From positions 1 to 21,503 of IMG/VR virus record IMGVR_UViG_3300030104_002165: DNA of 21,503 nt; one strand, given 5' to 3'. Of the stretch, positions 5,553-21,164 are shown piece after piece. The first letter of the stretch is position 1. Every line of letters begins with the position of its first letter. The DNA comes from a virus. A program made the position numbers and the translations under genes. The notes beneath the pieces are model-generated. The model had not been told where the DNA came from, ran no database searches, and was given only the letters and a program-made list of their open reading frames with translations.

Positions 5553-6653
5553 TCACTTTAGGTCACGAATTGAAGCGTGTCCTCCGAAGAAAGTGGTCCA
5601 TAGTTCTCCCATAGTTCGATACATTCCTTCTTGTCCAAGACGGTTGATTGCGAATGGGTCGCCGGTTTCGATACCGGATTCAAAGTATTGCGTTGGGATA
5701 GCAGTAGAGAAGTAGAGATAATCCGTGTCGAGGAAATACATACGACTCAATGTGTCTGCTTGAACATCCTTAGATGGGATGATAGGAACACCGTTGTAAG
5801 TTGCAACGATGAAACCTGCTTCAATACCCGGAACACCCTTAACTCCGTTGTAGGTAGGAGTGATACGCTTTTCCTCCATGAATCGCTGTTGCGATTGGAG
5901 AAGTTGTTGAAGTCGCATCAAAGTGTCATATCCAGTGAGGATAACCTTTGGATTACCACCACGAGTCCAGCACTTTTGGAAGATAGTGTCCAAGTGGTCG
6001 AGGGACAAAGTTCGGTCAGTGCCGGAGTTTTCATCATGTTCAGCCAAAGACCAAGAGTTTGCACTTCGGTCAATACTGTAAATGTCTTCGTTTGAAGAAG
6101 CAGATGCACCGGTAGTAACACGGTCAAGAGACTCAAAATCGTTTCCAGCGGCAGTAGCCTTGTCAACAAGAAGCATCTTGTTAATATGCTCGGCGTGGTG
6201 CTTACCCATTTCTTCTTTGAGGATTGAACGAATGTCGCCCAGTCCGTCATCCTTGTCAGCAAGGAACATTGCAGTTTCGCTCATGTCGAATGTGTGAACA
6301 ATCGTCTTTGGCTTTGCGGCGATGTGTTGGAAAACAGGTTTAGTAGTGTCCGGTAGTGTTGCGTTTTCTGCAACACCGCCACCAACAGTGAACGAAGGTC
6401 GTTCAGTGATGACTCGCCATCCACTGCGTTCCCACGGTCGCTTTGGTAGAATTGAAAATGCGTTGAACTCTTGGTTCAATTGCGACCATACTTTGCGACC
6501 ATAAATCGCTTGGTATGTTCCTGCTGTGCTTGATAGCATGGGGCTGTCAGCCTTGAGTAATTCACTACCGGAGTAGGAATAACCCATTGCATTGCCAGCA
6601 CCATAAAAGTACCGTTCCATGTCAGTTACGCTTCGTATGTAGTCTCGTGCCAT
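5553..6653 (-). CDS. Major capsid protein (HK97-like)
   Basis: A 366-residue protein starting MARDYIRSVTDMERYF, directly downstream of the prohead protease-scaffold gene, the standard place for an HK97-fold capsid protein. An upstream in-frame GTG at 6662 would add three residues, but a GGAGAG site lies at the right distance from the ATG at 6653. The N-terminal region resembles the arm of HK97-like capsids. Middle segments such as KVILTGYDTLMRLQQLL and the C-terminal NRLGQEGMYRTMGELWTTFFGGHASI, with Gly/Thr-rich loops, fit the family by eye. It has no long N-terminal delta domain, consistent with the scaffold being carried by the upstream protease gene. Role: the shell subunit, made in many copies and rearranged during maturation. 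Confidence 0.85.
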   Translation of the reverse strand: MARDYIRSVTDMERYFYGAGNAMGYSYSGSELLKADSPMLSSTAGTYQAIYGRKVWSQLNQEFNAFSILPKRPWERSGWRVITERPSFTVGGGVAENATLPDTTKPVFQHIAAKPKTIVHTFDMSETAMFLADKDDGLGDIRSILKEEMGKHHAEHINKMLLVDKATAAGNDFESLDRVTTGASASSNEDIYSIDRSANSWSLAEHDENSGTDRTLSLDHLDTIFQKCWTRGGNPKVILTGYDTLMRLQQLLQSQQRFMEEKRITPTYNGVKGVPGIEAGFIVATYNGVPIIPSKDVQADTLSRMYFLDTDYLYFSTAIPTQYFESGIETGDPFAINRLGQEGMYRTMGELWTTFFGGHASIRDLK

Positions 6654-6662
6654 ATATTTCAC

Positions 6663-6683: not shown

Positions 6684-8135
6684 TCAAGCCCCTCGGATTA
6701 CCGAACCGGCGAGATTGTGTACTTCATCCCAAGACATGTTACCCAAGTCTTGCGTGGATGGGACTTCAACATTAGATGAAGAAGCCGACTTTTGAATTGT
6801 AGTGCCTTCGACAGTCATGTTATCAATGCGCTCACTTAGTGCGTTAATTGACTTCATAACTTCATTGAGAGGCGCACGAGCATCGAACTCGGCTTTTTCG
6901 GCTTCTTGCTTTGCAATGTTTTGTTCTTCTGCAAAGCGAGATGCGAATTGAGATTCAAGGTCGCCACGGAATCCTTGTTCCAGTGCGGCGGCTTTGTAAA
7001 CTTCGTAAGCGGCTTCAACATCGGATGCTGAAACATTGCTTGGGTTAATGTAACTCTTAGACAAGGATGCCGGTCCCATTGCACCAGCAGGAGTCTTGCC
7101 ACCGGAAGCAGTAATAGCATTGATTGCACCAGTAGAAGGAGAGCCGTTTTCTTGTCCACGGCCACGAACTTGTCCACCAAAGTAATCAGCACCGTCAACA
7201 GCATCGGGGTTGTCGAAGCCACCAAGTTGCGCCTTCTCCAAGTTGTCGAAGTGTGTTCGTGCTTGCATGGTATCAACACCAGCGGATTTGAGGGTGTCCT
7301 CCATCCAGTTTAGGTATTCTGCGGTTATAACATCACTGTATTCACTCTTTGCGTAGTTCATTTTGTCATCATCCTCTTTTTCTTCGTCTTTATCTTTAGC
7401 GGCGAATGGGTTTTCCTTCTTTTCATCGTCGGAATCGTCTTTCTTATCGTTCATATGTTCCTTCAAGCCCGGTGGCATTTCGCCTTTTTCCATTGCGTCA
7501 AGTCGTGCTTCAAGTCTGCTCATTACATTATTCAAATCATTTTCTGTTGTCATGTTGGTGTCCTCCTTTAATATACGAAACTGTGCTTCGGGGTTAATTC
7601 CTTTTTCACATATCGTAATTTCGTGCAGTTCCATTTTACTAATTTCTTGGTAGTCTCCATGTTCTCCATCCGATTTACGCACTCTCTTGAATGCTTGTCC
7701 ACCAATGGAGAATCCTTGCAGGTTTCCTTTACGGATTTCTGCGGCCACTTCACGAGCCTTTTCAATATCGTTGCGAAGTGAAACAACGACAAACATACCA
7801 GCATCATCAACTTCGGACTTCCACATCCGACCATTTGAATCTACATAGGAGTCAATAACTTCTCCCACTTGAATATTTGAGTGAGCAAGTTGAACATTAC
7901 GGAACTTATCACTCTTCATGAACCCGCCAAACGCATCCTTTAGTGCTGAACGGGTAATAAGGTCGCCCTGCTTATCCACCAGTTCTACTGATGCATAGCC
8001 AGCGATAACCATATCGGAACTGCCCTTGATGAGAGCAATGCCGGAAGTAGGTCGCTTAAGGGACAACATTACCCTTCGATTCATTGTCATGGTATATAGA
8101 AGGTTTCTTTCACACTGAAAGAGTTGGAGTGCCAT
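6684..8135 (-). CDS. Prohead protease fused to scaffold-like region
   Basis: A 483-residue protein. Residues about 40-190 match the HK97-type (S78) prohead protease: VIAGYASVELVDKQGDLI near 43-60, His85 in LAHSNIQVGEV, Ser143 in GFSIGG, and Glu172 in LHEITICEKGINPEA. These are the likely catalytic His, Ser and Glu. The remainder is acidic and Lys/Glu-rich (230-260), then helical, as in scaffolding proteins. It ends in MSWDEVHNLAGS, a peptide also seen at the end of the 111-residue protein near 14.7 kb. The first 15 residues may be an overlap with the end of the giant gene; starts at residues 16, 18 or 23 are alternatives. It should cleave the scaffold and possibly other head proteins during maturation. 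Confidence 0.85.
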   Translation of the reverse strand: MALQLFQCERNLLYTMTMNRRVMLSLKRPTSGIALIKGSSDMVIAGYASVELVDKQGDLITRSALKDAFGGFMKSDKFRNVQLAHSNIQVGEVIDSYVDSNGRMWKSEVDDAGMFVVVSLRNDIEKAREVAAEIRKGNLQGFSIGGQAFKRVRKSDGEHGDYQEISKMELHEITICEKGINPEAQFRILKEDTNMTTENDLNNVMSRLEARLDAMEKGEMPPGLKEHMNDKKDDSDDEKKENPFAAKDKDEEKEDDDKMNYAKSEYSDVITAEYLNWMEDTLKSAGVDTMQARTHFDNLEKAQLGGFDNPDAVDGADYFGGQVRGRGQENGSPSTGAINAITASGGKTPAGAMGPASLSKSYINPSNVSASDVEAAYEVYKAAALEQGFRGDLESQFASRFAEEQNIAKQEAEKAEFDARAPLNEVMKSINALSERIDNMTVEGTTIQKSASSSNVEVPSTQDLGNMSWDEVHNLAGSVIRGA

Positions 8136-11100
8136 CTTTGTTATCTAAAACGATAGACTCGTCTGCATCTGTCTTCATTTCAATGTGTGTAACTGGTTTT
8201 TTCTTGTCATCACCCGAATCAGTATCTTTTTCATGTTCATCGGGTCTTTTTTTGCCATCATAGTCGGGTAAATTGCTTTCTTCTGTCAATTTTGTAGGAC
8301 CGCTTGGAGATTCAATAGGAGTCGCCATATCTATACCAAGTCCTTTTGGACCAGTCCATGTCATTTTTTCTTTACTGATTAAATCTAATGCTCTACTTAT
8401 TACTTCAAGTGCTTTTTTTGTTGAAGGTTTGAGTAAACGATTTTCGTCTTCTTCATCAAGTACGCCCGCTGACTGTCTATCTTGTCTTTCACGACTTGGA
8501 GGTTTTTCCTCCATCATTTCTAATTTAACAAGATGTCCGTCAAGCATAAGCGGGGCTAAGGTATGCCAATAAGGATGAAGACTTTCCGCCAATGTCAAAG
8601 AATAATTTGATTTTGTTAAATCACCTAATGCCGCAGACGGATTATGTAAATACCATTGTTCTTCGATTCTTGATACTTGATACGAAACAGTATCAATGTC
8701 TTTGAGTATCACTTGTATTACACCATCATTGTATTCTAAGTCATGCGGGATTAGTATAGGTGCGAAAGATTTTGTCATCAAATCAAGGGATTCAGCACTG
8801 GCCGCACCTTCACCCTCTCCTTCACTTTCAATTTCACGAACTTGAACATTGAATACATCACGGTTTTTTCTACGCTTCTTTGTAACACCAGTCACAGTCG
8901 CTCTTACGATATCACCAACTTTGAAAGTTCGTTGTTGATTATGTGCTGTGCCTACATCCATGTAGAATTGATTTTTGTATTCAATCGCTCGATTACCAAG
9001 CGCATCGCCATCAAGAATCGGCCCTGCACCTAATCGGTAAGTGAATGGCCCTTTCCCTCGACGGTCAAGAACAATGAAGTTAAAGTCACGGCTTTCACGC
9101 AATAATAACCACTTTGGATGACGACGCTCACCTTTCATGTATGTGGACTTGTTATCTCGTAACAATACTATACCATGTTCTTCTTGTAAGATTTTAACAG
9201 CATCTTCAAGACCTTCATCATCAGTCATTTTAGTGTCATGTGGACCCGGAATGATAACATTTTCATGACTATCAAACTGTCCTCTTAGAACTTTCATGCG
9301 CTCGTGCATCAACATTTCAGCAACATTGGTATCATCATAGTTGATAATATCAATAATGTTCAAATCTTCTTCACCTACTATACCATCAATGACAAAGTTA
9401 TTGTCGTTTAATTCAGCAAGACTTTCTTTGAAGGCTTTCTTCAATCCAACCTTACGCCCGTTTTCATCATAGGTAGTAATCTCATTATCGTTTTGTACGA
9501 TAATAACTCGCTTGCCATCATACCATTTACTTACAACCCAAGAACCACTAAACCCTCGTAGATGTTCAAGGTCACTTAAATCGAATATACGATGCATTGG
9601 TCTTACCGGAGGAACCCATTCAGCATCCTCGGCTTTTGTCAATAAGACATCGGGGTTCAAAAGTGAAGTAATGTATTCACTCATTTCACTCAAGTTAAGA
9701 GCAGTAGGGTTGTTTTCTCCGGGTATATCAAAAGTTTCTTTGTCGTAATCCATAAAAGGTGGAGTAGGATTAGGATGTGGAGGCATTGATTCAAGTAACT
9801 GTTTTGTCATATCTGTACCGTGAAGTTCTTCTAATGCACCTTGCCAAGTAGGGTGAAACAATTGAGGTTCAGTGTAAGTACCAACTGTTGGTTGTCCTTG
9901 AGCATTAAACTCAATACCAAACGATGAATGTTGAGGAACGGCAGAAGAGTGTACTACATCAGCACCAGTGTGTGTAGGCATGATACCTTGAGTAGAAGGG
10001 TTGACTCCGCCAATGGGAACTGGTTCTGTGTCCATACCTACTTTTCTTACTATCTCCATAGATGGGGTCATATTATCTTCATTCACTCTATCAATATCTA
10101 AACTTACAATACTATCAAGGTGATTTTTTGTTTTTCGTGTGTATGGTTTTTTACCACCCTTACCAGCATTTAATCTATTATGTACATCAAAATTACTCGC
10201 TGGATAATAATTTAAACCGTTATTTATCATATTAGAACCAAATTGCTTTGTATCAAAATACCTTGCGGCGTTACCCGAAATACCATGAATTGGATGCGCT
10301 TTCCAATTACTATGCCTACCTTGAGCATTGTCAATAGCGTGATGTAAACCGTTTTCTTCAAAGTCTTGAGCAAACTGTTCGTCGGCATGTGTTCTGTGAA
10401 GCATAAAATTATCAAAATTACCACTTGAAAGTAATTGACCTACTGTAGAAACCCGAAGAGGAACTTCTCTTACATTTGATTCATCAATTAACTGTTTTAC
10501 ATGTTCCCTTAGTCGTGATTTTTGTTCACTTGTTTTACCTTCTAAGCCCATACCTTCTAAGACTTCATCGGGTGTCATATTACCGTTTAACTCAAAACCG
10601 TTATCAAGCATATGATTCATAACATCTCTATGAAAACCGGATTGTTTTGATTTAACTTCTTTCATTTCATCTTGCATACGGTAAACTGATGATTTGATAC
10701 CGTGTACACTGTGGTCTGCATTTGCAAGCCATCGTTCAGCGTCATACATTAAGCGATTATGATTCGCCATAAACTTTTCCGGGTCGTTAATATCAAAATG
10801 ATTTGGGTCATGTTCCATAACTACTGGTAATAATTGCTTTGCGGCTTCAAGGACAGCATTACGACTGTTCTTGGCAATTTTATCCATAATACCAGCATCT
10901 TGTTTCCACCAACTACCTGCTTTACCAAGAGCCGCTTGAGTTGAACGGTTTTGTAATTTATTTAGTTCTGCTTGCCCTTCATACAGTTCTTGACGCATTG
11001 CTTCAATTTCTTCGGGTGATTCAGCGTAATTCATTTGTTCTGCAATTTGATTAAGCCTTTCATTCAATTGACTTTCTTTTTCCATTGCGGGTAACATACC

Positions 11101-13944
11101 GCCGAACTTTAATGCTGAATCAATCGTACTTGTAGTAAATGTGGTATCTTTTGTAGGTTTTATACGGGTTCGATTTTCTTGGTTGGCTCTTTTGGCTTCT
11201 TCACCTTTTTTCTGTCGAAGGTGAAACTCAAAACCATTTAACCAAGTTTTAAATCCTTCTAAGTCTCCTTCGTTAAGTGAGGAACCTTCTTGCTCTAAGC
11301 GATTTTTAATGTCTGCATACATCGGTTCTTCTTCATTTAAATTACGAATTGATTGTTCGATACGCTTGGGTGAATTACTACCACCTTCTTTTGCTATTGC
11401 AGTTAAAATACGCATGTTTTTTGCACTTTCAGCACTCGTAATGTAATCTTTAACATTAGCAAAGTTTTGAGATTTTGAACCCCAACCCATGAAATCCATA
11501 TAGTCTTCATGGTCCACACCGAAACTCACAGGTATGTTTCCGCTTTGTAAGTCTTTCAATGATTGAACCGAGTTTTTCTGTGGTTTGTATGGGTCATTTG
11601 TATGCCCCAACATTGTTTTTCGCCAGTGTTGTTTTCTCGCTTTTTCAAGTAATGAAGTGTCCGATATATTTGCACCATAAGTACTTTTTGGGTGTGATGT
11701 AGTCAACGGATGATGTGATATCAAATTACTCATGTATGGTAATCCTTTGTATTCTTTCTTTTCAGCAGGGGTCATGTTACGAAGTGTGTATTTTAAATCG
11801 GGATTGTAAGTTGATTTATGGAGTGTCCAATTATGTTTACTACCATTGCTTAATTTTGTAAATGTATTTGCCGGTGAAAGTATGTTTTGAATAAGTTCTG
11901 CATTATTATGTCGTACAAACTTATCAAATGACTTCTTTTTTGTTTTATCAAAGCCTTTTTCGTAAGTGCCTATCGCTCTTGCTTTTTCGGGGCCAAAGTG
12001 CATACCCAAAGCCATGTTCATATTATTGGGTTGTAAAATACCATTATTATCTAATTCAAACAAAGGTGAAGTTTTTGGAAAAGACATGTCTTTTGGTTTT
12101 TGTATTATTGGTGTTGCTACTGGTTGTTCTCCACTCGTTATATCTACAGGTTCTTTTCTTGCGATATTTGCATACGCTTGCTCGATTTTTTCTTCTTCTG
12201 TTAATTCATCTTCATTATGTGCGGTGCTGTGAATAATTTCATTGTATGTAGCCAACGATAAACCAGCACCACCGACTTGAGCAAAAGGTTTACTCCAAAA
12301 CTTTGCTGGCCCTACAGTGTGATTACCACCCTTACCTAATTGCCAATGTTGAGGTTTTTCTTCATCGGGATGAGGGCCGTGTGGCGATTGTAAATATGCA
12401 AGGTCAGTTCTAATTTCTTTCGCTCTTTGCTCTAAAGAGCCATGAGATTTAGCCTCCGACTCCATTTGCTCTAAGTCGTGAAGTGGAATAATTGGTCCAT
12501 CCATCTCTCCGTATATTGGATGATTAAGAAGCGGCTTTCGTGTTTTAGGGTCAAAACCAGCGAGAAATAAAATATCCTCCATTGGCATACGGGTATGTTT
12601 CGGGTCCATTCCTCTTGTCTTTTTATAATGTCTAAAAGTTCCACTTCGTAAGTCTTGCAAAGAATAACTATCTTGAATTGGGTTTGAATGAGTATTTAGC
12701 CTCGGTAAGACATCAAATGGTTTACCAACACCTTCATTTTCTTCATCACCTAATTCTATACCATGAAGGTCATGTATTGCGTCTGTGATGTAATGTGAAA
12801 GTGGTTGCCCTCCTATTTCATATGTATGCGCCGCTTCACCAAACGCCGCTTGCATGAAACGATTTTCACCTTGATTAAAGTCGGCTTCATTACTTTCTTG
12901 ACGCAAATGACTGTTTGGACCGTGATGCCCTGCTTCTCTTAACGCCCAATTCATTTCGGGTGTACGGCGCATTAAATTATTCCAAGTAAACCTCGCTGTA
13001 GGAATATGTTCACCATTTGGTAGTTTAATATCATCATGTTCATCAACTCCCTTTTCGCTTTTATGGCGCATAACAGCAGTGCGTTCTTCGGGATTAAGCC
13101 ACTCAAGACCGAGGTGATACCCCTCTTGTCCTAATCCAACAGCGTGTTCATCACCATTTTCATCGGTAACATAACCGTCACTTTGCCATTGTTTTGCTCG
13201 TTGATTAAAGTGGTCCACTCGCAAACGATTTTCAGTTTCTTCTGCTGAACGACCATCAGCAAGATAGTTGTCTTTCAATTCACTGTTAAGTTTATTCCAG
13301 CGTTGAAAATCACGCTCATACAAATCTTGTTGGTGAGTATAATTTGATTTATGTGTTCTTAACGAACCTAAAATCTTCTTTTTATTATGTCCAAATACTA
13401 TTGGACTCTTCTTTTCTTGTAAGTATTTTTGATATTGTTTTTCCATCTCCGCTTCTTCTTTAGCGTGTCCACCAAATATGTGACTTCGTAATACTTCAAC
13501 ATAAGCGGCATTACCTTTTTCGGAGTCCATTCGCAAAAGCGGGTGATTAGTATGGTGAAAGGGAAAATTATGTTCTCGGTATGGGTGTGATGCAGTAGGA
13601 GTATATCGAGGCCAAACGGCGTGAGATTCTTTTAACCCGTCTGCACCTGCTAAACGGTCTTTCCAAATGTGATTTGTTGGCTCACCGTGTGTATGGTGAT
13701 GTGCAAGGAGAAAACCCGGACCCGGTTTGTAAGTTTTGTCTTCTTCTACATATGTTTCATCATCTTTGGCTTTTTGAATTGTTTCAGCCGTGTATTTTAA
13801 CGACCTTGAAAGTATGTCTGTAGGGGCTTTGTTAAGAGACTCCCACGCAATAATATATTCAGCGGCACTAAAGGCTAAGTCGTTACCGTCTGCTAAAGAA
13901 AGTAAGAGTTCATCTTTTGCGATGTTGAATTGTTCTGCTACCAT
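8110..13944 (-). CDS. Giant 1944-residue protein with C-terminal DNA-ligase-like module
   Basis: A single open frame of 1944 residues, started by ATG 13944 with a TGAGGCGGTGA ribosome site. Residues about 80-135 are His-rich (HHH at 82-84), about 945-1000 is a probable coiled coil, and most of residues 140-1400 has no motif I recognise. Near 1473-1480 is SKWYDGKRV, like motif I (KxDG) of ATP-dependent DNA ligases; near 1517-1524 FVIDGIVG like motif III; IIDIINYDD and R1549 like motif IIIa; E1589-R1596 like motif IV; W1612-R1616 like motif V. About 1630-1700 resembles the OB-fold (VGDIVRATVTGV). Key lysines and glutamates are altered, so activity is doubtful. It lies between the portal and the protease, so it may be a virion or ejected protein. 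The ligase similarity is judged by eye. Confidence 0.8.
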   Translation of the reverse strand: MVAEQFNIAKDELLLSLADGNDLAFSAAEYIIAWESLNKAPTDILSRSLKYTAETIQKAKDDETYVEEDKTYKPGPGFLLAHHHTHGEPTNHIWKDRLAGADGLKESHAVWPRYTPTASHPYREHNFPFHHTNHPLLRMDSEKGNAAYVEVLRSHIFGGHAKEEAEMEKQYQKYLQEKKSPIVFGHNKKKILGSLRTHKSNYTHQQDLYERDFQRWNKLNSELKDNYLADGRSAEETENRLRVDHFNQRAKQWQSDGYVTDENGDEHAVGLGQEGYHLGLEWLNPEERTAVMRHKSEKGVDEHDDIKLPNGEHIPTARFTWNNLMRRTPEMNWALREAGHHGPNSHLRQESNEADFNQGENRFMQAAFGEAAHTYEIGGQPLSHYITDAIHDLHGIELGDEENEGVGKPFDVLPRLNTHSNPIQDSYSLQDLRSGTFRHYKKTRGMDPKHTRMPMEDILFLAGFDPKTRKPLLNHPIYGEMDGPIIPLHDLEQMESEAKSHGSLEQRAKEIRTDLAYLQSPHGPHPDEEKPQHWQLGKGGNHTVGPAKFWSKPFAQVGGAGLSLATYNEIIHSTAHNEDELTEEEKIEQAYANIARKEPVDITSGEQPVATPIIQKPKDMSFPKTSPLFELDNNGILQPNNMNMALGMHFGPEKARAIGTYEKGFDKTKKKSFDKFVRHNNAELIQNILSPANTFTKLSNGSKHNWTLHKSTYNPDLKYTLRNMTPAEKKEYKGLPYMSNLISHHPLTTSHPKSTYGANISDTSLLEKARKQHWRKTMLGHTNDPYKPQKNSVQSLKDLQSGNIPVSFGVDHEDYMDFMGWGSKSQNFANVKDYITSAESAKNMRILTAIAKEGGSNSPKRIEQSIRNLNEEEPMYADIKNRLEQEGSSLNEGDLEGFKTWLNGFEFHLRQKKGEEAKRANQENRTRIKPTKDTTFTTSTIDSALKFGGMLPAMEKESQLNERLNQIAEQMNYAESPEEIEAMRQELYEGQAELNKLQNRSTQAALGKAGSWWKQDAGIMDKIAKNSRNAVLEAAKQLLPVVMEHDPNHFDINDPEKFMANHNRLMYDAERWLANADHSVHGIKSSVYRMQDEMKEVKSKQSGFHRDVMNHMLDNGFELNGNMTPDEVLEGMGLEGKTSEQKSRLREHVKQLIDESNVREVPLRVSTVGQLLSSGNFDNFMLHRTHADEQFAQDFEENGLHHAIDNAQGRHSNWKAHPIHGISGNAARYFDTKQFGSNMINNGLNYYPASNFDVHNRLNAGKGGKKPYTRKTKNHLDSIVSLDIDRVNEDNMTPSMEIVRKVGMDTEPVPIGGVNPSTQGIMPTHTGADVVHSSAVPQHSSFGIEFNAQGQPTVGTYTEPQLFHPTWQGALEELHGTDMTKQLLESMPPHPNPTPPFMDYDKETFDIPGENNPTALNLSEMSEYITSLLNPDVLLTKAEDAEWVPPVRPMHRIFDLSDLEHLRGFSGSWVVSKWYDGKRVIIVQNDNEITTYDENGRKVGLKKAFKESLAELNDNNFVIDGIVGEEDLNIIDIINYDDTNVAEMLMHERMKVLRGQFDSHENVIIPGPHDTKMTDDEGLEDAVKILQEEHGIVLLRDNKSTYMKGERRHPKWLLLRESRDFNFIVLDRRGKGPFTYRLGAGPILDGDALGNRAIEYKNQFYMDVGTAHNQQRTFKVGDIVRATVTGVTKKRRKNRDVFNVQVREIESEGEGEGAASAESLDLMTKSFAPILIPHDLEYNDGVIQVILKDIDTVSYQVSRIEEQWYLHNPSAALGDLTKSNYSLTLAESLHPYWHTLAPLMLDGHLVKLEMMEEKPPSRERQDRQSAGVLDEEDENRLLKPSTKKALEVISRALDLISKEKMTWTGPKGLGIDMATPIESPSGPTKLTEESNLPDYDGKKRPDEHEKDTDSGDDKKKPVTHIEMKTDADESIVLDNKDGTPTLSV

Positions 13945-14136: not shown

Positions 14137-14691
14137 TCAATATTTTCGTTCAGTTCCGCCTTCTGCATCTTCTCTTTCAGCACCAGTTCCAGCGTGAGGG
14201 TTCATACGACCGCCGAGTTTACTTAAGTCAACTTTCTTGTCATGCTTGTCTCGCTTTGGTTTACCATCTTCATATTCGATAGCGTTACCATTTGTAGTAT
14301 AGTAAGAAGTCTTAGTCTGTCCACCGGATTCAGTAACCAAGTGTGGGTTTATATCAGTGATTTTTTCTTTTGGAAGTGGTTTCGGGTCAGCCAAAGGGTC
14401 AGCCTTTTCCATTTTACCACCGCAACCCATCTTCATGCAACCGCCTTTTTCCATTTTAGAACCACATTTAGGACAATCTTCTGCTTTAGCCATTTTACCA
14501 CCACAGCCCATCTTCATGCAACCGCCTTTTTCCATTTTAGAACCGCACTTAGGACAGTCTTTACATTCACATGGTTCTTTACCACAGTCACATTTGGCTT
14601 TAGCCAATGCGTCTAATCGTAAGTTCAATTCTTCTGCTTTTTGAAGCATCTGTTTTACTTCGTAACTGACTGGTTCAAATCTTGGTTTCAT
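14137..14691 (-). CDS. Cys-rich protein with tandem zinc-ribbon repeat
   Basis: A 184-residue protein. A helical N-terminus (1-33) leads into a Cys-rich region from C34 to about residue 95. Here a 27-residue unit, CPKCGSKMEKGGCMKMGCGG (with KM(A/E)KA following), occurs twice in tandem at 46-72 and 73-98, preceded by C34, C36, C41 and C43. Each unit has a CxxC pair and two further cysteines, as in a zinc ribbon. The tail (100-184) is polar, charged and Gly-rich and probably disordered. Start follows the stop of the 111-residue gene by two bases. Metal or nucleic-acid binding is plausible; the exact role is unknown. Confidence 0.8.
   Translation of the reverse strand: MKPRFEPVSYEVKQMLQKAEELNLRLDALAKAKCDCGKEPCECKDCPKCGSKMEKGGCMKMGCGGKMAKAEDCPKCGSKMEKGGCMKMGCGGKMEKADPLADPKPLPKEKITDINPHLVTESGGQTKTSYYTTNGNAIEYEDGKPKRDKHDKKVDLSKLGGRMNPHAGTGAEREDAEGGTERKY
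14398..14556 (-). repeat. 81-bp tandem repeat encoding zinc-ribbon units
   Basis: Two nearly identical copies with an 81-bp period inside the 184-residue gene. For example CCCATCTTCATGCAACCGCC (plus strand) starts at 14426 and again at 14507. The copies are in frame and differ at a few bases, mostly silent, suggesting an older duplication kept for the encoded Cys unit. Confidence 0.85.
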
Positions 14692-15438: not shown

Positions 15439-17205
15439 TTATGCACCTTTGAAGTTTCTTGCATTCAAAAGAGCATTACTATTTTGCTGTCCAATACTGG
15501 GTTGCGGCCCTCTTTGTTGCACACTTGTTACAGGAGAACCACTACCAGCCGATGTACGGCGTTGCGGTGCGGCTGGCCCTCTATCACGCATACCCATACC
15601 CTGTCCACCCGGTTGCACTGGTGGCATTGGCATACCGCCCATTGGCATACCCGGAGGCATACCTCTCATTGGCATACCACCCATTGGCATACCCGGAGGT
15701 GGCATTCCGCCTCCCGGTGGCATCATAGGAGGTGGTGCGCCTCCACCCATAGGTGGTGCGCCACCCGATGGTGCGGCGGGTTGAGGTGGAGGTTTACGAT
15801 AGACGAATCGAATATCACTGCTGGACTCACCATCAATTAAATCAGCGGTGAATCCAAGTTGCGCCATACGCTGTGCTACATTCAACTCTTGTTCATCACG
15901 GCGTAGTCGAGTAATTTCATCCTCTTCTTCGTTTGGATAAAGCGTGAGTTTCCAATCATGCACACCCATTTGTTTGAGTAGTTTAGGGAATAAAACATCA
16001 GTGTAAGTTTTTTGTCCAAACTCAACAGCACGATTTGTTACAAGTATTTGCATACCTTCATTACTCAAACCGCCGGATTTACCACTGTCAACCATAAAGA
16101 CGCTTGAAACACCAAAATAAGCGGCGATACGATTGCGTATTTCGTCACGAACAGCAATGTATTGCATTTCTTCTAAAGTGTCCATAAACTTAATCCAATT
16201 AACACCACCACGGCCTGTTTGACTTTCAATACCAACTTTAGGAATGTAATGTGGGTCACGCTCCATTTTTTCATCTACGGATTTCCAAAACGATTTCATT
16301 GATTCAAGATTATCAGTAGTCACTGATATGATACCTTTTGGCATTCTTCGCTTTTGATAAGAAGTGTACATGTAATTGTCCATCGCTGTGAGTGTCATTG
16401 CTTGTCGCCACATGGTATTGACAGGTGAACGACCATAGAGTTTAGACGGATTATATTTGCTTAAGTGAAGCACTTCACCTTCAATGAAATACTGTGTTTT
16501 ACCGCTACCGGCCATGTTGACATAATGAACATCATGTAAATCACTACCACATATTTCACAGGTATCGCTTTCAGCATGTGTTTTTACTTGGTCCCTATGG
16601 ATTCGACAAACTTTGTATCGCCCACCACGGACACCACGCTTGTCAGCAACAATACGCATGAAAATAGGGTCGCCACGAATTAGTTCTTTAACACGGAAAA
16701 ACGCTACTTCTTTTGATTCGGGGTCAATGTAGTATTCCTTGACTAAAATTAAGAAAGCATCATCAACAATGTTAAGGTCATTTTCAATTTCATTAAGAAT
16801 ATGGATAAATGCTTGTTCCATACTATTTTCTTGATTAAGTAACCATTTCACATAGGTTAATTCTTCATGGTCGGGGTCACGCACTTGACCTCCACACGCA
16901 TCGCAAGACTCAACATCATGTTGGTATTCTTCACCACAGTCAACGCATTTTTTATGAAAACGCTTTTCAAAGTAATGTCCTCTTCGGAACATTTCTTGAC
17001 GGATTTTTGAAAGCACAGTTCTTAAAATCAAACATTCTGTGCTTACAGCATACAGCGCAGGTATAGTAATACCCTGCGCCATAACTGGTTCTTGAATACC
17101 ACTGGTCCAAAGCGGCATAGTAGGAGTTGGAGATTCCTTACGCTTGAATGGTTTTCCAAGTGCGCTCAAAAATCTACTTATTCTACTGTCATCATCTGCC
17201 ATCAT
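15439..17205 (-). CDS. Portal protein with two Cys-pair insertions and repetitive tail
   Basis: A 588-residue protein with portal-like segments: EGEVLHLSKYNPSKLYGRSP (242-261) and RMPKGIISVTTD (287-298), a wing-like MQYIAVRDEIRNRIAAYFGV (347-366), and SGGLSNEGMQILVTNRA (377-393). It forms the ring at one head vertex through which TerL pumps DNA. Unusual features are CVDC/CDAC (C87, C90, C101, C104) and a second set with C200, C216 and C219, likely zinc knuckles. The tail from about 472 to 570 is Pro/Gly/Met-rich with GMPMGG repeats. The start ATG has a GGAGGG site and overlaps the stop of the upstream gene (ATGATG). Confidence 0.85.
   Translation of the reverse strand: MMADDDSRISRFLSALGKPFKRKESPTPTMPLWTSGIQEPVMAQGITIPALYAVSTECLILRTVLSKIRQEMFRRGHYFEKRFHKKCVDCGEEYQHDVESCDACGGQVRDPDHEELTYVKWLLNQENSMEQAFIHILNEIENDLNIVDDAFLILVKEYYIDPESKEVAFFRVKELIRGDPIFMRIVADKRGVRGGRYKVCRIHRDQVKTHAESDTCEICGSDLHDVHYVNMAGSGKTQYFIEGEVLHLSKYNPSKLYGRSPVNTMWRQAMTLTAMDNYMYTSYQKRRMPKGIISVTTDNLESMKSFWKSVDEKMERDPHYIPKVGIESQTGRGGVNWIKFMDTLEEMQYIAVRDEIRNRIAAYFGVSSVFMVDSGKSGGLSNEGMQILVTNRAVEFGQKTYTDVLFPKLLKQMGVHDWKLTLYPNEEEDEITRLRRDEQELNVAQRMAQLGFTADLIDGESSSDIRFVYRKPPPQPAAPSGGAPPMGGGAPPPMMPPGGGMPPPGMPMGGMPMRGMPPGMPMGGMPMPPVQPGGQGMGMRDRGPAAPQRRTSAGSGSPVTSVQQRGPQPSIGQQNSNALLNARNFKGA
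15625..15692 (-). repeat. Repeats in portal tail (GMPMGG units)
   Basis: Four copies of the 11-mer CATTGGCATAC (plus strand) start at 15625, 15640, 15667 and 15682, with spacings 15, 27 and 15. They form a 42-bp higher-order repeat that encodes PPGMPMGGMPM-type units in the tail of the portal. Confidence 0.8.
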
Positions 17206-18500
17206 AATCCCTCCGCAAATCCACCTATGGTATCAGCATCCAAGCCCCACTTAGACAAGAGGTTGTCGGCTTTCTTTTTATCATCTTTCCAATTATTGAA
17301 AGTAACAAGTTTTTGTAATTCGTCTTTTCTTAATTTATCTTTTGAGTCAATGAAAGATAAAACAGCCTTTGCTTGTAACGATTTCATTTTTAGATGAGGT
17401 AAAATACCTTTGAGTAATTGGCGTAAATCGTCTTTTGATTGAAAAACAAGACGGTGGAGGCTTCGATTACTGTTTTTATGCACTTTTTGGTTAAGAACTA
17501 AACGACCACAGCCTAATGCTTTATGCAAGTTTTCGCAGTGGTCTTTACCTCTATCACCTGTTGCAACAAAAGTTGCTCTTGGCTCACCTCTTTCGCTGAT
17601 GAATATACTACCATCAGCATCAAGGAAACCAGCCGCATAAGCCCAAATGTCTTTGATAATCAAACCATTTGTTCCCATTTTAACAAATAGACCACGACTG
17701 TGCGCTCGGTAAATATCTAATTCTTCTCCGTACATTTTAATCAACATACCGACTTTACTCGGTGTAGTAGATTTATGCAATACACCAACACCACGACGAA
17801 CAATTTCACGGCTACTCAATTCTCCGTTTTCTTCTAATTGTTTTGAAATAAACTCCAATGTCGCTTTATCGTCTTTTGAAATAGAATCAATTTGGTGTAA
17901 TGTTCCACGCCACATTTTTTGAGCATCTTTACGCATTTGCATAGCGTCAACCCAATTTTCTTGTTCTTCTACTCCCCAATTATCTAATTCGTTTAACATT
18001 GAAAGAACCGATGATGCTTTCAAAAACATTTGACATGCCTGTTGTAGCCCTGTGCTTCTTGTCTCGCCAAACTTTCGTAGTGATTTTAATGAACGGTCAT
18101 TTAACCCCATATATCGAATAGTGTCTTGTAAACCATCACTCCAAGATAGATTGTTGATAGTTGCTTCTACCTCCATTGCTTTAATAGTTCTTACATCATC
18201 AATAATAGCATCAATCATATCACGATTACTTTTGTCATTGCGCCGCATCTTTCGACACATACGAATTATTGAATTGGCATCTTTACCATAAGTTGCTTCA
18301 AGCCAACCATCTCCGTTTTTAGGAAAGCCGTATGATTTAATTTCTTCATTAGAAAAAAGTGTCGAGTCTTTTTTTATTGGTATATTTTGATGAACATAAT
18401 GAGGATGTTGGGCAAGAGTGTTATACACGCTTTTTGTAAAGTCGTCACCAACAATAGCAGGTGCATCATACACATCACCAACGATAGCACTACCCCACAT
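17202..18500 (-). CDS. LAGLIDADG-domain protein (putative homing endonuclease or DNA-binding protein)
   Basis: A 432-residue protein. Residues 289-297 read AAGFLDADG, a clear LAGLIDADG motif with the acidic residue D296 in the position used for metal binding, followed by about 90 residues typical of one half-domain (to about 385). Only one motif is visible, so it would act as a homodimer if active. Residues about 210-275 look like a winged-helix or helix-turn-helix region (FISKQLEENGELSSREIVRR). The N-terminal part is not recognised, and has AIVGD twice (5-9, 15-19). It is a free-standing gene in the packaging module, with a GAGGTAG ribosome site; its stop overlaps the portal start. It may be a selfish endonuclease or a co-opted regulator. 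Confidence 0.8.
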   Translation of the reverse strand: MWGSAIVGDVYDAPAIVGDDFTKSVYNTLAQHPHYVHQNIPIKKDSTLFSNEEIKSYGFPKNGDGWLEATYGKDANSIIRMCRKMRRNDKSNRDMIDAIIDDVRTIKAMEVEATINNLSWSDGLQDTIRYMGLNDRSLKSLRKFGETRSTGLQQACQMFLKASSVLSMLNELDNWGVEEQENWVDAMQMRKDAQKMWRGTLHQIDSISKDDKATLEFISKQLEENGELSSREIVRRGVGVLHKSTTPSKVGMLIKMYGEELDIYRAHSRGLFVKMGTNGLIIKDIWAYAAGFLDADGSIFISERGEPRATFVATGDRGKDHCENLHKALGCGRLVLNQKVHKNSNRSLHRLVFQSKDDLRQLLKGILPHLKMKSLQAKAVLSFIDSKDKLRKDELQKLVTFNNWKDDKKKADNLLSKWGLDADTIGGFAEGL

Positions 18501-19673: not shown

Positions 19674-21164
19674 TCATGGTACTAACCATCCATCGTTATT
19701 TCCTTTATTTCTATGTGGAGTTCCACCAATATACTCATCCAATCCGGGTAGTATATCATCGAGTAGTTGCACTGAACCTTTGAACTCTTTCGTTCCCCAG
19801 TTCGCTAAAGCAAGTGCCATTGCTAAGTCATCGTGTGTTCCCACCGATTCAAGTCGTCCATTTTTTTGCATACCGAATCGGTTAAGTTCTTCTTCTATTT
19901 TATGCGTGAATGTACGGCTTCGCTCATCACCATATGGTAATTGGATTTGTCCTTGTTCAAACGCCATAAGTAAAGACATGAACATACTTTCTTTCCGCTG
20001 GCGAGTTGTCATAAAGGTGCGAATAGGAATATCCCCTCTCATGTCTTGAAGTTCAGCGGCAAACATTCGCTGAAAGTTGTTACCTTCAAGTTCAATCAAA
20101 TCCGGCTGGAAACGACTATTAAGAGTAAGAATGTGTTTTTTCTGTGCCAATCCACCAAGTCCCTTCTCGTGAACTATACCAACAATTTGCTTTACATTCT
20201 CACCGGGCGGTGTACGCAAAACAAGCATGGCTGTGTAGTCAGCATTCTTATCCGATGCAATCGCTGTGTCCCATCCGATAAAGTGTTGACCGAACACGCC
20301 AGCGGGATTACCCTCTTCGTCATACTCGGTATCGGCCCTATCGAGTAATACCAAGTCTGTATTACGAGCCTCATTAAGAATAGTAGCAGGGAACATACTC
20401 GCAACATCGTGAATAGGTTCACACAGGTATTCACGGCTGAATTGTATAGCGGGCATTGACATACGCCGTTGTTCAAGTGCCTCAAGGTTCCACCGTTCCG
20501 GCCAAAGTGCATTACCTTCACCGTCAATCGCAGGGTATGTTTCGACACGGAATGTTTCTTTTTCTTCTAATTCAGCATACAAATCGTTGTAACTAAACGG
20601 TGTTCCTACCATCATCAAACGAGATGAGTGGTGCAGAACAGGGAGTAGAACACCGTAGAACCAGTCAGCGGCTCGCTGTAGTTCTCCACCAGTTGTTCCC
20701 CAAAGAATATCGTCGCATACTACCACATCGGGGTGGAAACCACGAGTTGCACCACCAACCGACTTAGCCATTAGACGGCTACCATTGGTGAACTCAAAAT
20801 AAGACTTAGCCCACGGTCGGCCACCTTCGGGCTTTAGGTGTCGTAGAATATCAGCACTTTCGATGTTGTTACGAATAAATCGCATGTGTTCAAGTGTCTG
20901 TTCAAGAGAGTGAGAGAAAATCATGATGTGTGTGCCGGGTTTGAATGCGGCTATCCAAAGAGCATAGGCCATAAACAAAGTGGACTTACCGTGGTCCCGA
21001 CTCGCTTTAACACAGTAGTAACGGTGTTCATTCAATCCTGTTTCCCATGATTCATGGTGATGACTGTAATGAAAGCCCAGTATTTCTGTAAAGAAAAACT
21101 TGAATGACTTTGCCGCCATCTTGCTATCCATCTCTTGGATAAACGCATTCATATCCTCTCCCAT
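19674..21164 (-). CDS. Large terminase subunit (TerL)
   Basis: A 496-residue DNA-packaging motor protein. The ATPase domain has a Walker-A-like ASRDHGKST at 54-62, Walker B VVVCDD at 147-152 (the two Asp at 151 and 152 fit the Mg and catalytic positions), and the coupling motif MVGTPFS at 185-191. The C-terminal nuclease has the acidic triad region: D299 in IGWDTA, E358/E360 in IELEGN, and D445/D446 in THDDLAMAL. It would cut concatemeric genomes and translocate DNA into the capsid through the portal. The start ATG lies four bases after the stop of the upstream gene. Length and motif order are as expected for the family. Confidence 0.93.
   Translation of the reverse strand: MGEDMNAFIQEMDSKMAAKSFKFFFTEILGFHYSHHHESWETGLNEHRYYCVKASRDHGKSTLFMAYALWIAAFKPGTHIMIFSHSLEQTLEHMRFIRNNIESADILRHLKPEGGRPWAKSYFEFTNGSRLMAKSVGGATRGFHPDVVVCDDILWGTTGGELQRAADWFYGVLLPVLHHSSRLMMVGTPFSYNDLYAELEEKETFRVETYPAIDGEGNALWPERWNLEALEQRRMSMPAIQFSREYLCEPIHDVASMFPATILNEARNTDLVLLDRADTEYDEEGNPAGVFGQHFIGWDTAIASDKNADYTAMLVLRTPPGENVKQIVGIVHEKGLGGLAQKKHILTLNSRFQPDLIELEGNNFQRMFAAELQDMRGDIPIRTFMTTRQRKESMFMSLLMAFEQGQIQLPYGDERSRTFTHKIEEELNRFGMQKNGRLESVGTHDDLAMALALANWGTKEFKGSVQLLDDILPGLDEYIGGTPHRNKGNNDGWLVP

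What the first reader, a model, noticed from the sequence alone, without database searches (positions are those of the whole stretch)
8110..9640. Giant protein ends in a DNA-ligase-like module inside the head gene cluster
Seen: the C-terminal third of the 1944-residue protein has segments in the right order for ATP-dependent ligase motifs (SKWYDGKRV at 1472-1480, FVIDGIVG at 1517-1524, then IIDIINYDD, EHGIVLLR at 1589-1596, WLLLR at 1612-1616) followed by an OB-fold-like stretch. Known: phage ligases are normally stand-alone replication proteins and are not built into very large proteins of the head region. Inference: this may be a virion-carried or ejected protein that binds or repairs DNA ends, or a re-used fold that binds nucleotide or nicked DNA.
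Basis: partly seen in the sequence, partly recalled or inferred. Interest (0 to 1): 0.8.

Follow-up and report, generated by a model that had tools for sequence, protein, structure and literature searches.

The report
Dead DNA-ligase fold in giant head-cluster protein
A very abundant group of ocean archaeal viruses carries, at the end of a giant protein made with its head genes, a DNA-ligase-shaped module that has lost its catalytic residues but is strongly preserved; papers list it as a working replication ligase, which it probably is not.

Summary
Residues ~1443-1720 of the 1944-aa protein (window 8785-9618, minus strand) are homologous to ATP-dependent DNA ligases, as nucleotidyltransferase plus OB fold: PDB profile search E=1.2e-6 to an archaeal ligase, confident AlphaFold model (pLDDT 86.6), Foldseek E=5.3e-14 with DNA ligases filling the top ranks. 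But the catalytic residues are gone. In a joint alignment with 75 archaeal ligases, the motif I lysine is K in 75/75 ligases and W/M/Y/F in 50/50 viral proteins (110/110 in a larger viral set). The fold residues remain, and the module has the lowest dN/dS of the giant (~0.03). It is a pseudo-ligase. The window fits the magroviruses of marine archaea. Every related contig long enough has this gene, and 28 contigs (up to 107.6 kb) show no other ATP-ligase. A published magrovirus 'ATP-dependent DNA ligase' lies next to the prohead protease, i.e. it is most likely this gene. A virion DNA-end-binding or structural role is the likeliest function but is inferred.

The parts
8110..13944 (-). Giant gene, 1944 aa, between the portal-side genes and the prohead protease
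   Evidence: full-length homologues of 1724-2013 aa in magrovirus-like loci
9655..13944 (-). Residues 1-1430: long, weakly conserved region with no detectable homology; Glu/Lys-rich, coiled-coil-like stretch around 850-1010
   Evidence: No convincing Pfam, PHROG or PDB match to profiles of 31 diverse members
9070..9618 (-). Residues 1443-1625: catalytically degenerate nucleotidyltransferase (adenylation) domain of ATP-dependent DNA-ligase type
9505..9531 (-). Degenerate motif I, SKWYDGKRV (1472-1480): nucleophile Lys position is W1474; G1477 and R1479 retained
   Evidence: 110 sequences; joint alignment with ligases
9373..9396 (-). Degenerate motif III, FVIDGIVG (1517-1524): Glu position is I1522
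   Evidence: register at this site set by eye because MAFFT places a gap here
9334..9360 (-). Motif IIIa-like, NIIDIINYD (1529-1537), Asp retained
9154..9180 (-). Degenerate motif IV (1589-1597): Glu position variable (G in window), Lys replaced by R1596
9097..9147 (-). STYMKGERRHPKWLLLR (1600-1616): ligase S-Y-G-W scaffold retained; motif V KxK replaced by LxR
8815..9069 (-). Residues 1626-1710: OB-fold-like beta-barrel
   Evidence: AlphaFold strands and helix in model m89812f17b477; Foldseek alignments to ligases have 355-358 columns against the 375-aa query; weak S1/OB-type profile hits
8515..8784 (-). Residues 1721-1810: small mixed beta/helix domain after the OB fold
   Evidence: conserved columns
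8257..8427 (-). Residues 1840-1896: highly conserved tail (LGIDMATP..SPSGPT..LPDYDG), unknown role
6684..8135 (-). Prohead protease (Peptidase_S78); its predicted start overlaps the end of the giant gene by 26 bases
5553..6662 (-). Major capsid protein (SU10/HVTV-1 type)
15439..17205 (-). Portal protein
19674..21164 (-). Terminase large subunit

Best explanation
The C-terminal ~280 residues are a pseudo-ligase: an ATP-dependent DNA-ligase core (nucleotidyltransferase plus OB fold) fused to a giant late protein, stripped of adenylation chemistry and kept under strong purifying selection. SHOWN: homology, predicted fold, loss of catalytic residues in the whole family, conservation, position in the head cluster, no other ligase found. 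INFERRED: the protein is a component of the capsid or portal vertex, made with the head genes, and the ligase fold is used as a binding module, most likely for duplex DNA (an end or nick of the packaged genome) or else for a partner head protein, without sealing. The virus would then rely on the host ligase to join Okazaki fragments and to close its genome.
For: Homology and fold. Catalytic loss: motif I Lys 75/75 archaeal ligases versus 0/50 viral; motif III Glu replaced; motif V first Lys 76/76 ligases (T7 included) versus 0/50; motif IV Lys to Arg in 49/50; 110/110 viral sequences lack the motif I Lys, down to 34% identity. Selection: dN/dS 0.00-0.04 in the module versus 0.07-0.30 elsewhere in the protein; most conserved region. 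Context: 120 of 135 capsid-selected loci have the giant; the other 15 are truncated before or within it. No PF01068 match outside the giant in 28 contigs, no TIGR00574 match outside it in 18, no NAD-ligase or RNA-ligase family in 14, although PolB is present in 11 of 12.
Against: No experiment shows that the protein is in virions or binds DNA. The nucleotidyltransferase part is net acidic (-10), which does not favour strong DNA binding. The motif III register is set by eye. A ligase too divergent for these models cannot be excluded, and contig completeness is unknown.
Confidence: 0.6

Rival explanations
1. It is an active replicative DNA ligase of the virus, as the literature lists it, that happens to be fused to a head-cluster gene.
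For: Magroviruses are published as having an ATP-dependent DNA ligase, counted in the replisome (PMC10768690, PMC12999244, PMC10160649). Clear homology. K1473, one residue from the motif I position, is invariant in the first 80 sequences.
Against: The catalytic residues of motifs I, III, IV and V are replaced; K1473 is A/V/H/D/T/I in divergent members. The gene lies with the head genes.
Confidence: 0.05
2. The module is purely structural: the ligase fold was recruited as a protein-protein platform at the portal or inside the capsid and no longer touches nucleic acid.
For: Catalytic and nucleotide contacts are lost; net acidic nucleotidyltransferase part; new invariant residues unlike ligases (PMHRIF, GxW, GExRHPKW).
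Against: Motif I Gly and Arg, and the OB fold, are retained; conserved basic residues in the OB part (K1689, K1690, R1692).
Confidence: 0.25
3. The giant is an injected early-acting protein: it leaves the head with the genome and its pseudo-ligase occupies DNA ends or nicks in the host, shielding them from host nucleases or end-joining.
For: Giant size and position. In the related halovirus HVTV-1 the same portal-to-protease slot holds large proteins, one annotated as zeta toxin, i.e. an enzyme-derived head-region protein.
Against: No homology between the giant and the HVTV-1 proteins; no ejection data.
Confidence: 0.1

Closest known systems
Archaeal/eukaryotic ATP-dependent DNA ligases (PF01068; structures 4eq5, 2cfm, 3gde; human LigIII 3l2p)
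   Same: Nucleotidyltransferase plus OB architecture; motif I G and R, motif IIIa Asp, S-Y-G-W scaffold before motif V
   Different: Main catalytic residues replaced; no N-terminal ligase DNA-binding domain detected; fused to a ~1430-aa unrelated N-terminal part; head gene cluster
Published magrovirus 'ATP-dependent DNA ligase'
   Different: Treated in the literature as a replication enzyme; the sequence shows a catalytically degenerate module in a giant head-cluster protein
Snurportin-1 m3G-cap-binding domain (PF21974)
   Same: From own knowledge: a non-catalytic relative of the capping-enzyme nucleotidyltransferase fold kept for binding; weakly hit by the module's profile (E 0.028; 7 members in Pfam)
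   Different: Binds a methylated RNA cap; eukaryotic; weak score, not a family assignment
HVTV-1 gp113-gp116 (Druskaviridae)
   Same: Same slot between portal and prohead protease, large proteins, related capsid protein (36.5% identity)
   Different: No detectable sequence homology with the giant; an annotated zeta toxin instead of a ligase fold

Membership tests
ATP-dependent DNA ligase (functional) | Nucleotidyltransferase-domain homology | tested here: met
ATP-dependent DNA ligase (functional) | OB-fold domain after the nucleotidyltransferase domain | tested here: met
   Confident predicted model and Foldseek alignments covering both domains; prediction only
ATP-dependent DNA ligase (functional) | Motif I nucleophile lysine (KxDGxR) | tested here: not met
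   W in window; 0/50 and 0/110 viral sequences have Lys
ATP-dependent DNA ligase (functional) | Motif III glutamate | tested here: not met
   I1522 in window; I/V/M in 110/110; register by eye, MAFFT shows a gap
ATP-dependent DNA ligase (functional) | Motif IV glutamate and lysine | tested here: not met
   Glu only in 13/50, G in window; Lys replaced by Arg in 49/50
ATP-dependent DNA ligase (functional) | Motif V lysines | tested here: not met
   First Lys 0/50 (L/M/V/I); second mostly Arg
ATP-dependent DNA ligase (functional) | Self-adenylation and nick sealing | not testable with these tools
   Needs biochemistry
Virion (head or ejection) protein | Encoded in the late head-gene cluster | tested here: met
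Virion (head or ejection) protein | Detected in purified particles | not testable with these tools
   Uncultured viruses; no proteomics found
Virion (head or ejection) protein | Homology to a known head or ejection protein | tested here: not met
Magrovirales | HVTV-1-related capsid protein, PolB, marine origin, 90-110 kb genomes | tested here: inconclusive
   and contig sizes fit, but no named magrovirus record was available for direct comparison

The most novel reading that the evidence does not exclude
A giant capsid protein of tailed archaeal viruses uses an inactivated DNA ligase as a clamp on the end (or a nick) of the packaged genome, holding it at the portal or escorting it into the host: a repair enzyme turned into a packaging or ejection part.
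Probability: 0.2. Interest if true: 0.8.

Novelty: new variant of a known kind. Interest (0 to 1): 0.55.

Why it matters
Magroviruses are described as carrying nearly a whole replisome including a ligase, and hence as needing little from the host. If their only recognisable ligase is a dead module in a head-cluster protein, that inference fails: they should depend on the host ligase. It is also a clear case of a ligase fold kept under very strong selection without its chemistry, in a virus group that the literature ranks among the most abundant in the ocean (PMC10160649), and it gives a testable handle on a 1.9-kaa protein of otherwise unknown function.

Tried and rejected
First AlphaFold run on a shallow alignment gave a poor model (pLDDT 50) and was replaced by the 50-sequence run. 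Direct sequence search of PDB with the single protein: no hit. Search for relatives of the module in named phage records: nothing or chance-level hits; in cellular genomes: none. Homology of the giant to HVTV-1 gp112-gp119 or vir519 gene 22: none (a marginal vir519 match is coiled-coil composition). Homology of residues 1-1430: none convincing. A split giant in L038 (three ORFs) differs from near-identical L031 by two stop codons among 7 base differences and was treated as probable sequence error or isolated damage. Idea that K1473 is a displaced nucleophile: rejected because it is not conserved in divergent members and the other catalytic residues are gone too.

Full report
WHAT IS THERE. The window is a late gene cluster read on the minus strand: terminase large subunit (19674-21164), portal (15439-17205), three small genes, a 1944-aa giant gene (8110-13944), prohead protease (6684-8135) and major capsid protein (5553-6662). 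The capsid protein is 36.5% identical to halovirus HVTV-1 and 75-98% or more identical to capsid proteins of the IMG/VR contigs retrieved. Related large contigs (77-108 kb) carry a family B DNA polymerase (11 of 12 tested). This fits magroviruses, viruses assigned to Poseidoniales archaea; no named magrovirus record was available for direct comparison, so the assignment is inference.

IS THE OBSERVATION RIGHT. Yes. The window protein alone hits the Pfam ligase domain only weakly (E 0.0064, below the curated cut-off). As a family the signal is clear: 42/42 members hit PF01068 (best 1.9e-7) and 41/42 hit TIGR00574. A profile of 50 diverse members finds archaeal ligase 4eq5 in PDB at E 1.2e-6 and human DNA ligase III at 4.5e-4. 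HHalign against 56 archaeal ligases gives E 2.1e-7 and probability 93.6% over 180 columns. The AlphaFold model from the deep alignment is confident (pLDDT 86.6, pTM 0.75), and Foldseek ranks DNA ligases first in PDB (E 5.3e-14, TM 0.53 on the query) and finds mostly ligases and capping enzymes among viral models. The best Foldseek alignments have 355-358 columns against a 375-aa query, so the OB fold is included.

CATALYSIS IS LOST. I aligned 75 archaeal ligase ORFs (chosen without any motif filter) and T7 ligase with 50 viral modules. Motif I lysine: K in 75 of 76 ligases with one gap; viral W 34, M 9, Y 4, F 3. Motif III glutamate: 76/76; viral I/V/M by manual register (the aligner leaves a gap there). 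Motif IV glutamate: 76/76; viral mixed (13 E; G in the window). Motif IV lysine: 76/76; viral R 49, K 1. Motif V first lysine: 76/76; viral L/M/V/I. Motif V second lysine: 76/76; viral mostly R. Residues that shape the fold are kept: motif I Gly and Arg 50/50, motif IIIa Asp 48/50, and the Ser, Tyr, Gly and Trp before motif V 50/50. In a larger set of 110 viral modules down to 34% identity, none has the motif I lysine; the nearby K1473 that made motif I look intact is K in only 83. In divergent members the stretch reads SDYPEGDR or SAFPEGER. This is a pseudo-ligase by sequence; enzymatic inactivity itself was not measured.

IT IS NOT DECAY. The module is the most conserved part of the giant. 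Against five close relatives its dN/dS is 0.00-0.04 versus 0.07-0.30 in the other segments. New invariant residues have appeared that ligases lack (PMHRIF, GxW, GExRHPKW).

HOW GENERAL. Of 135 loci found by capsid protein, 120 have the giant, and the remaining 15 are truncated before or within it. In 28 related contigs up to 107.6 kb there is no PF01068 match outside the giant; the same holds for TIGR00574 in 18, and no NAD-ligase or RNA-ligase family is found in 14. Contig completeness is not known.

RELATION TO THE LITERATURE. Magroviruses are said to encode an ATP-dependent DNA ligase as part of an almost complete replisome (PMC10768690, PMC12999244, PMC10160649). [quoted passage not shown] That neighbourhood is the end of the giant gene found here. 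So the ligase similarity was already noted; what appears new is that it belongs to a giant head-cluster protein and is catalytically degenerate. The original annotation paper (Philosof 2017) was not held, so I cannot say what its authors noted.

FUNCTION. Position and direction of transcription suggest a head or portal-vertex component; this is inference. The retained motif I Arg, the OB fold and conserved basic residues suggest contact with DNA ends or nicks; the net acidic nucleotidyltransferase part speaks against simple DNA binding. A purely structural use is the main rival. In HVTV-1 the same slot holds unrelated large proteins, one annotated as zeta toxin, which hints that this slot tolerates large enzyme-derived proteins. 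Residues 1-1430 have no detectable relatives.

VERDICT. A real and well-supported pseudo-ligase module; an existing literature label is probably functionally wrong; the mechanism is open.

Noticed in passing
window 15439-17205: The portal protein carries zinc-ribbon-like Cys groups (CVDC...CDAC and a second C...CEIC group); the HVTV-1 portal has four CxxC pairs.
   Followed up: partly
window 14137-14691: 184-aa protein with a duplicated Cys-rich unit CPKCGSKMEKGGCMKMGCGGKM, just upstream of the giant gene.
   Followed up: no
window 17202-18500: 432-aa gene between terminase and portal with a C-terminal HNH-endonuclease PHROG match (E 3.4e-9); HVTV-1 also has HNH genes next to its terminase.
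   Followed up: no
window 8257-8427: Giant protein tail with near-invariant LGIDMATP..SPSGPT..LPDYDG, conserved about as strongly as the ligase-like module; could be a docking or processing site.
   Followed up: partly
L038:534-6353: The giant is split by two in-frame TAA codons relative to near-identical L031 (7 base differences in 5820); probably sequence error or isolated damage.
   Followed up: partly
L082:8539-12480 (HVTV-1 gp115): Zeta-toxin-annotated protein in the slot equivalent to the giant; its C-terminal end looks by eye like an ADP-ribosyltransferase.
   Followed up: no
BFVD entry A0A516LT18: An 827-aa viral protein without a name at hand is by far the best viral structure match (E 8.1e-25, 23% identity); possibly a deposited relative of this module.
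   Followed up: partly
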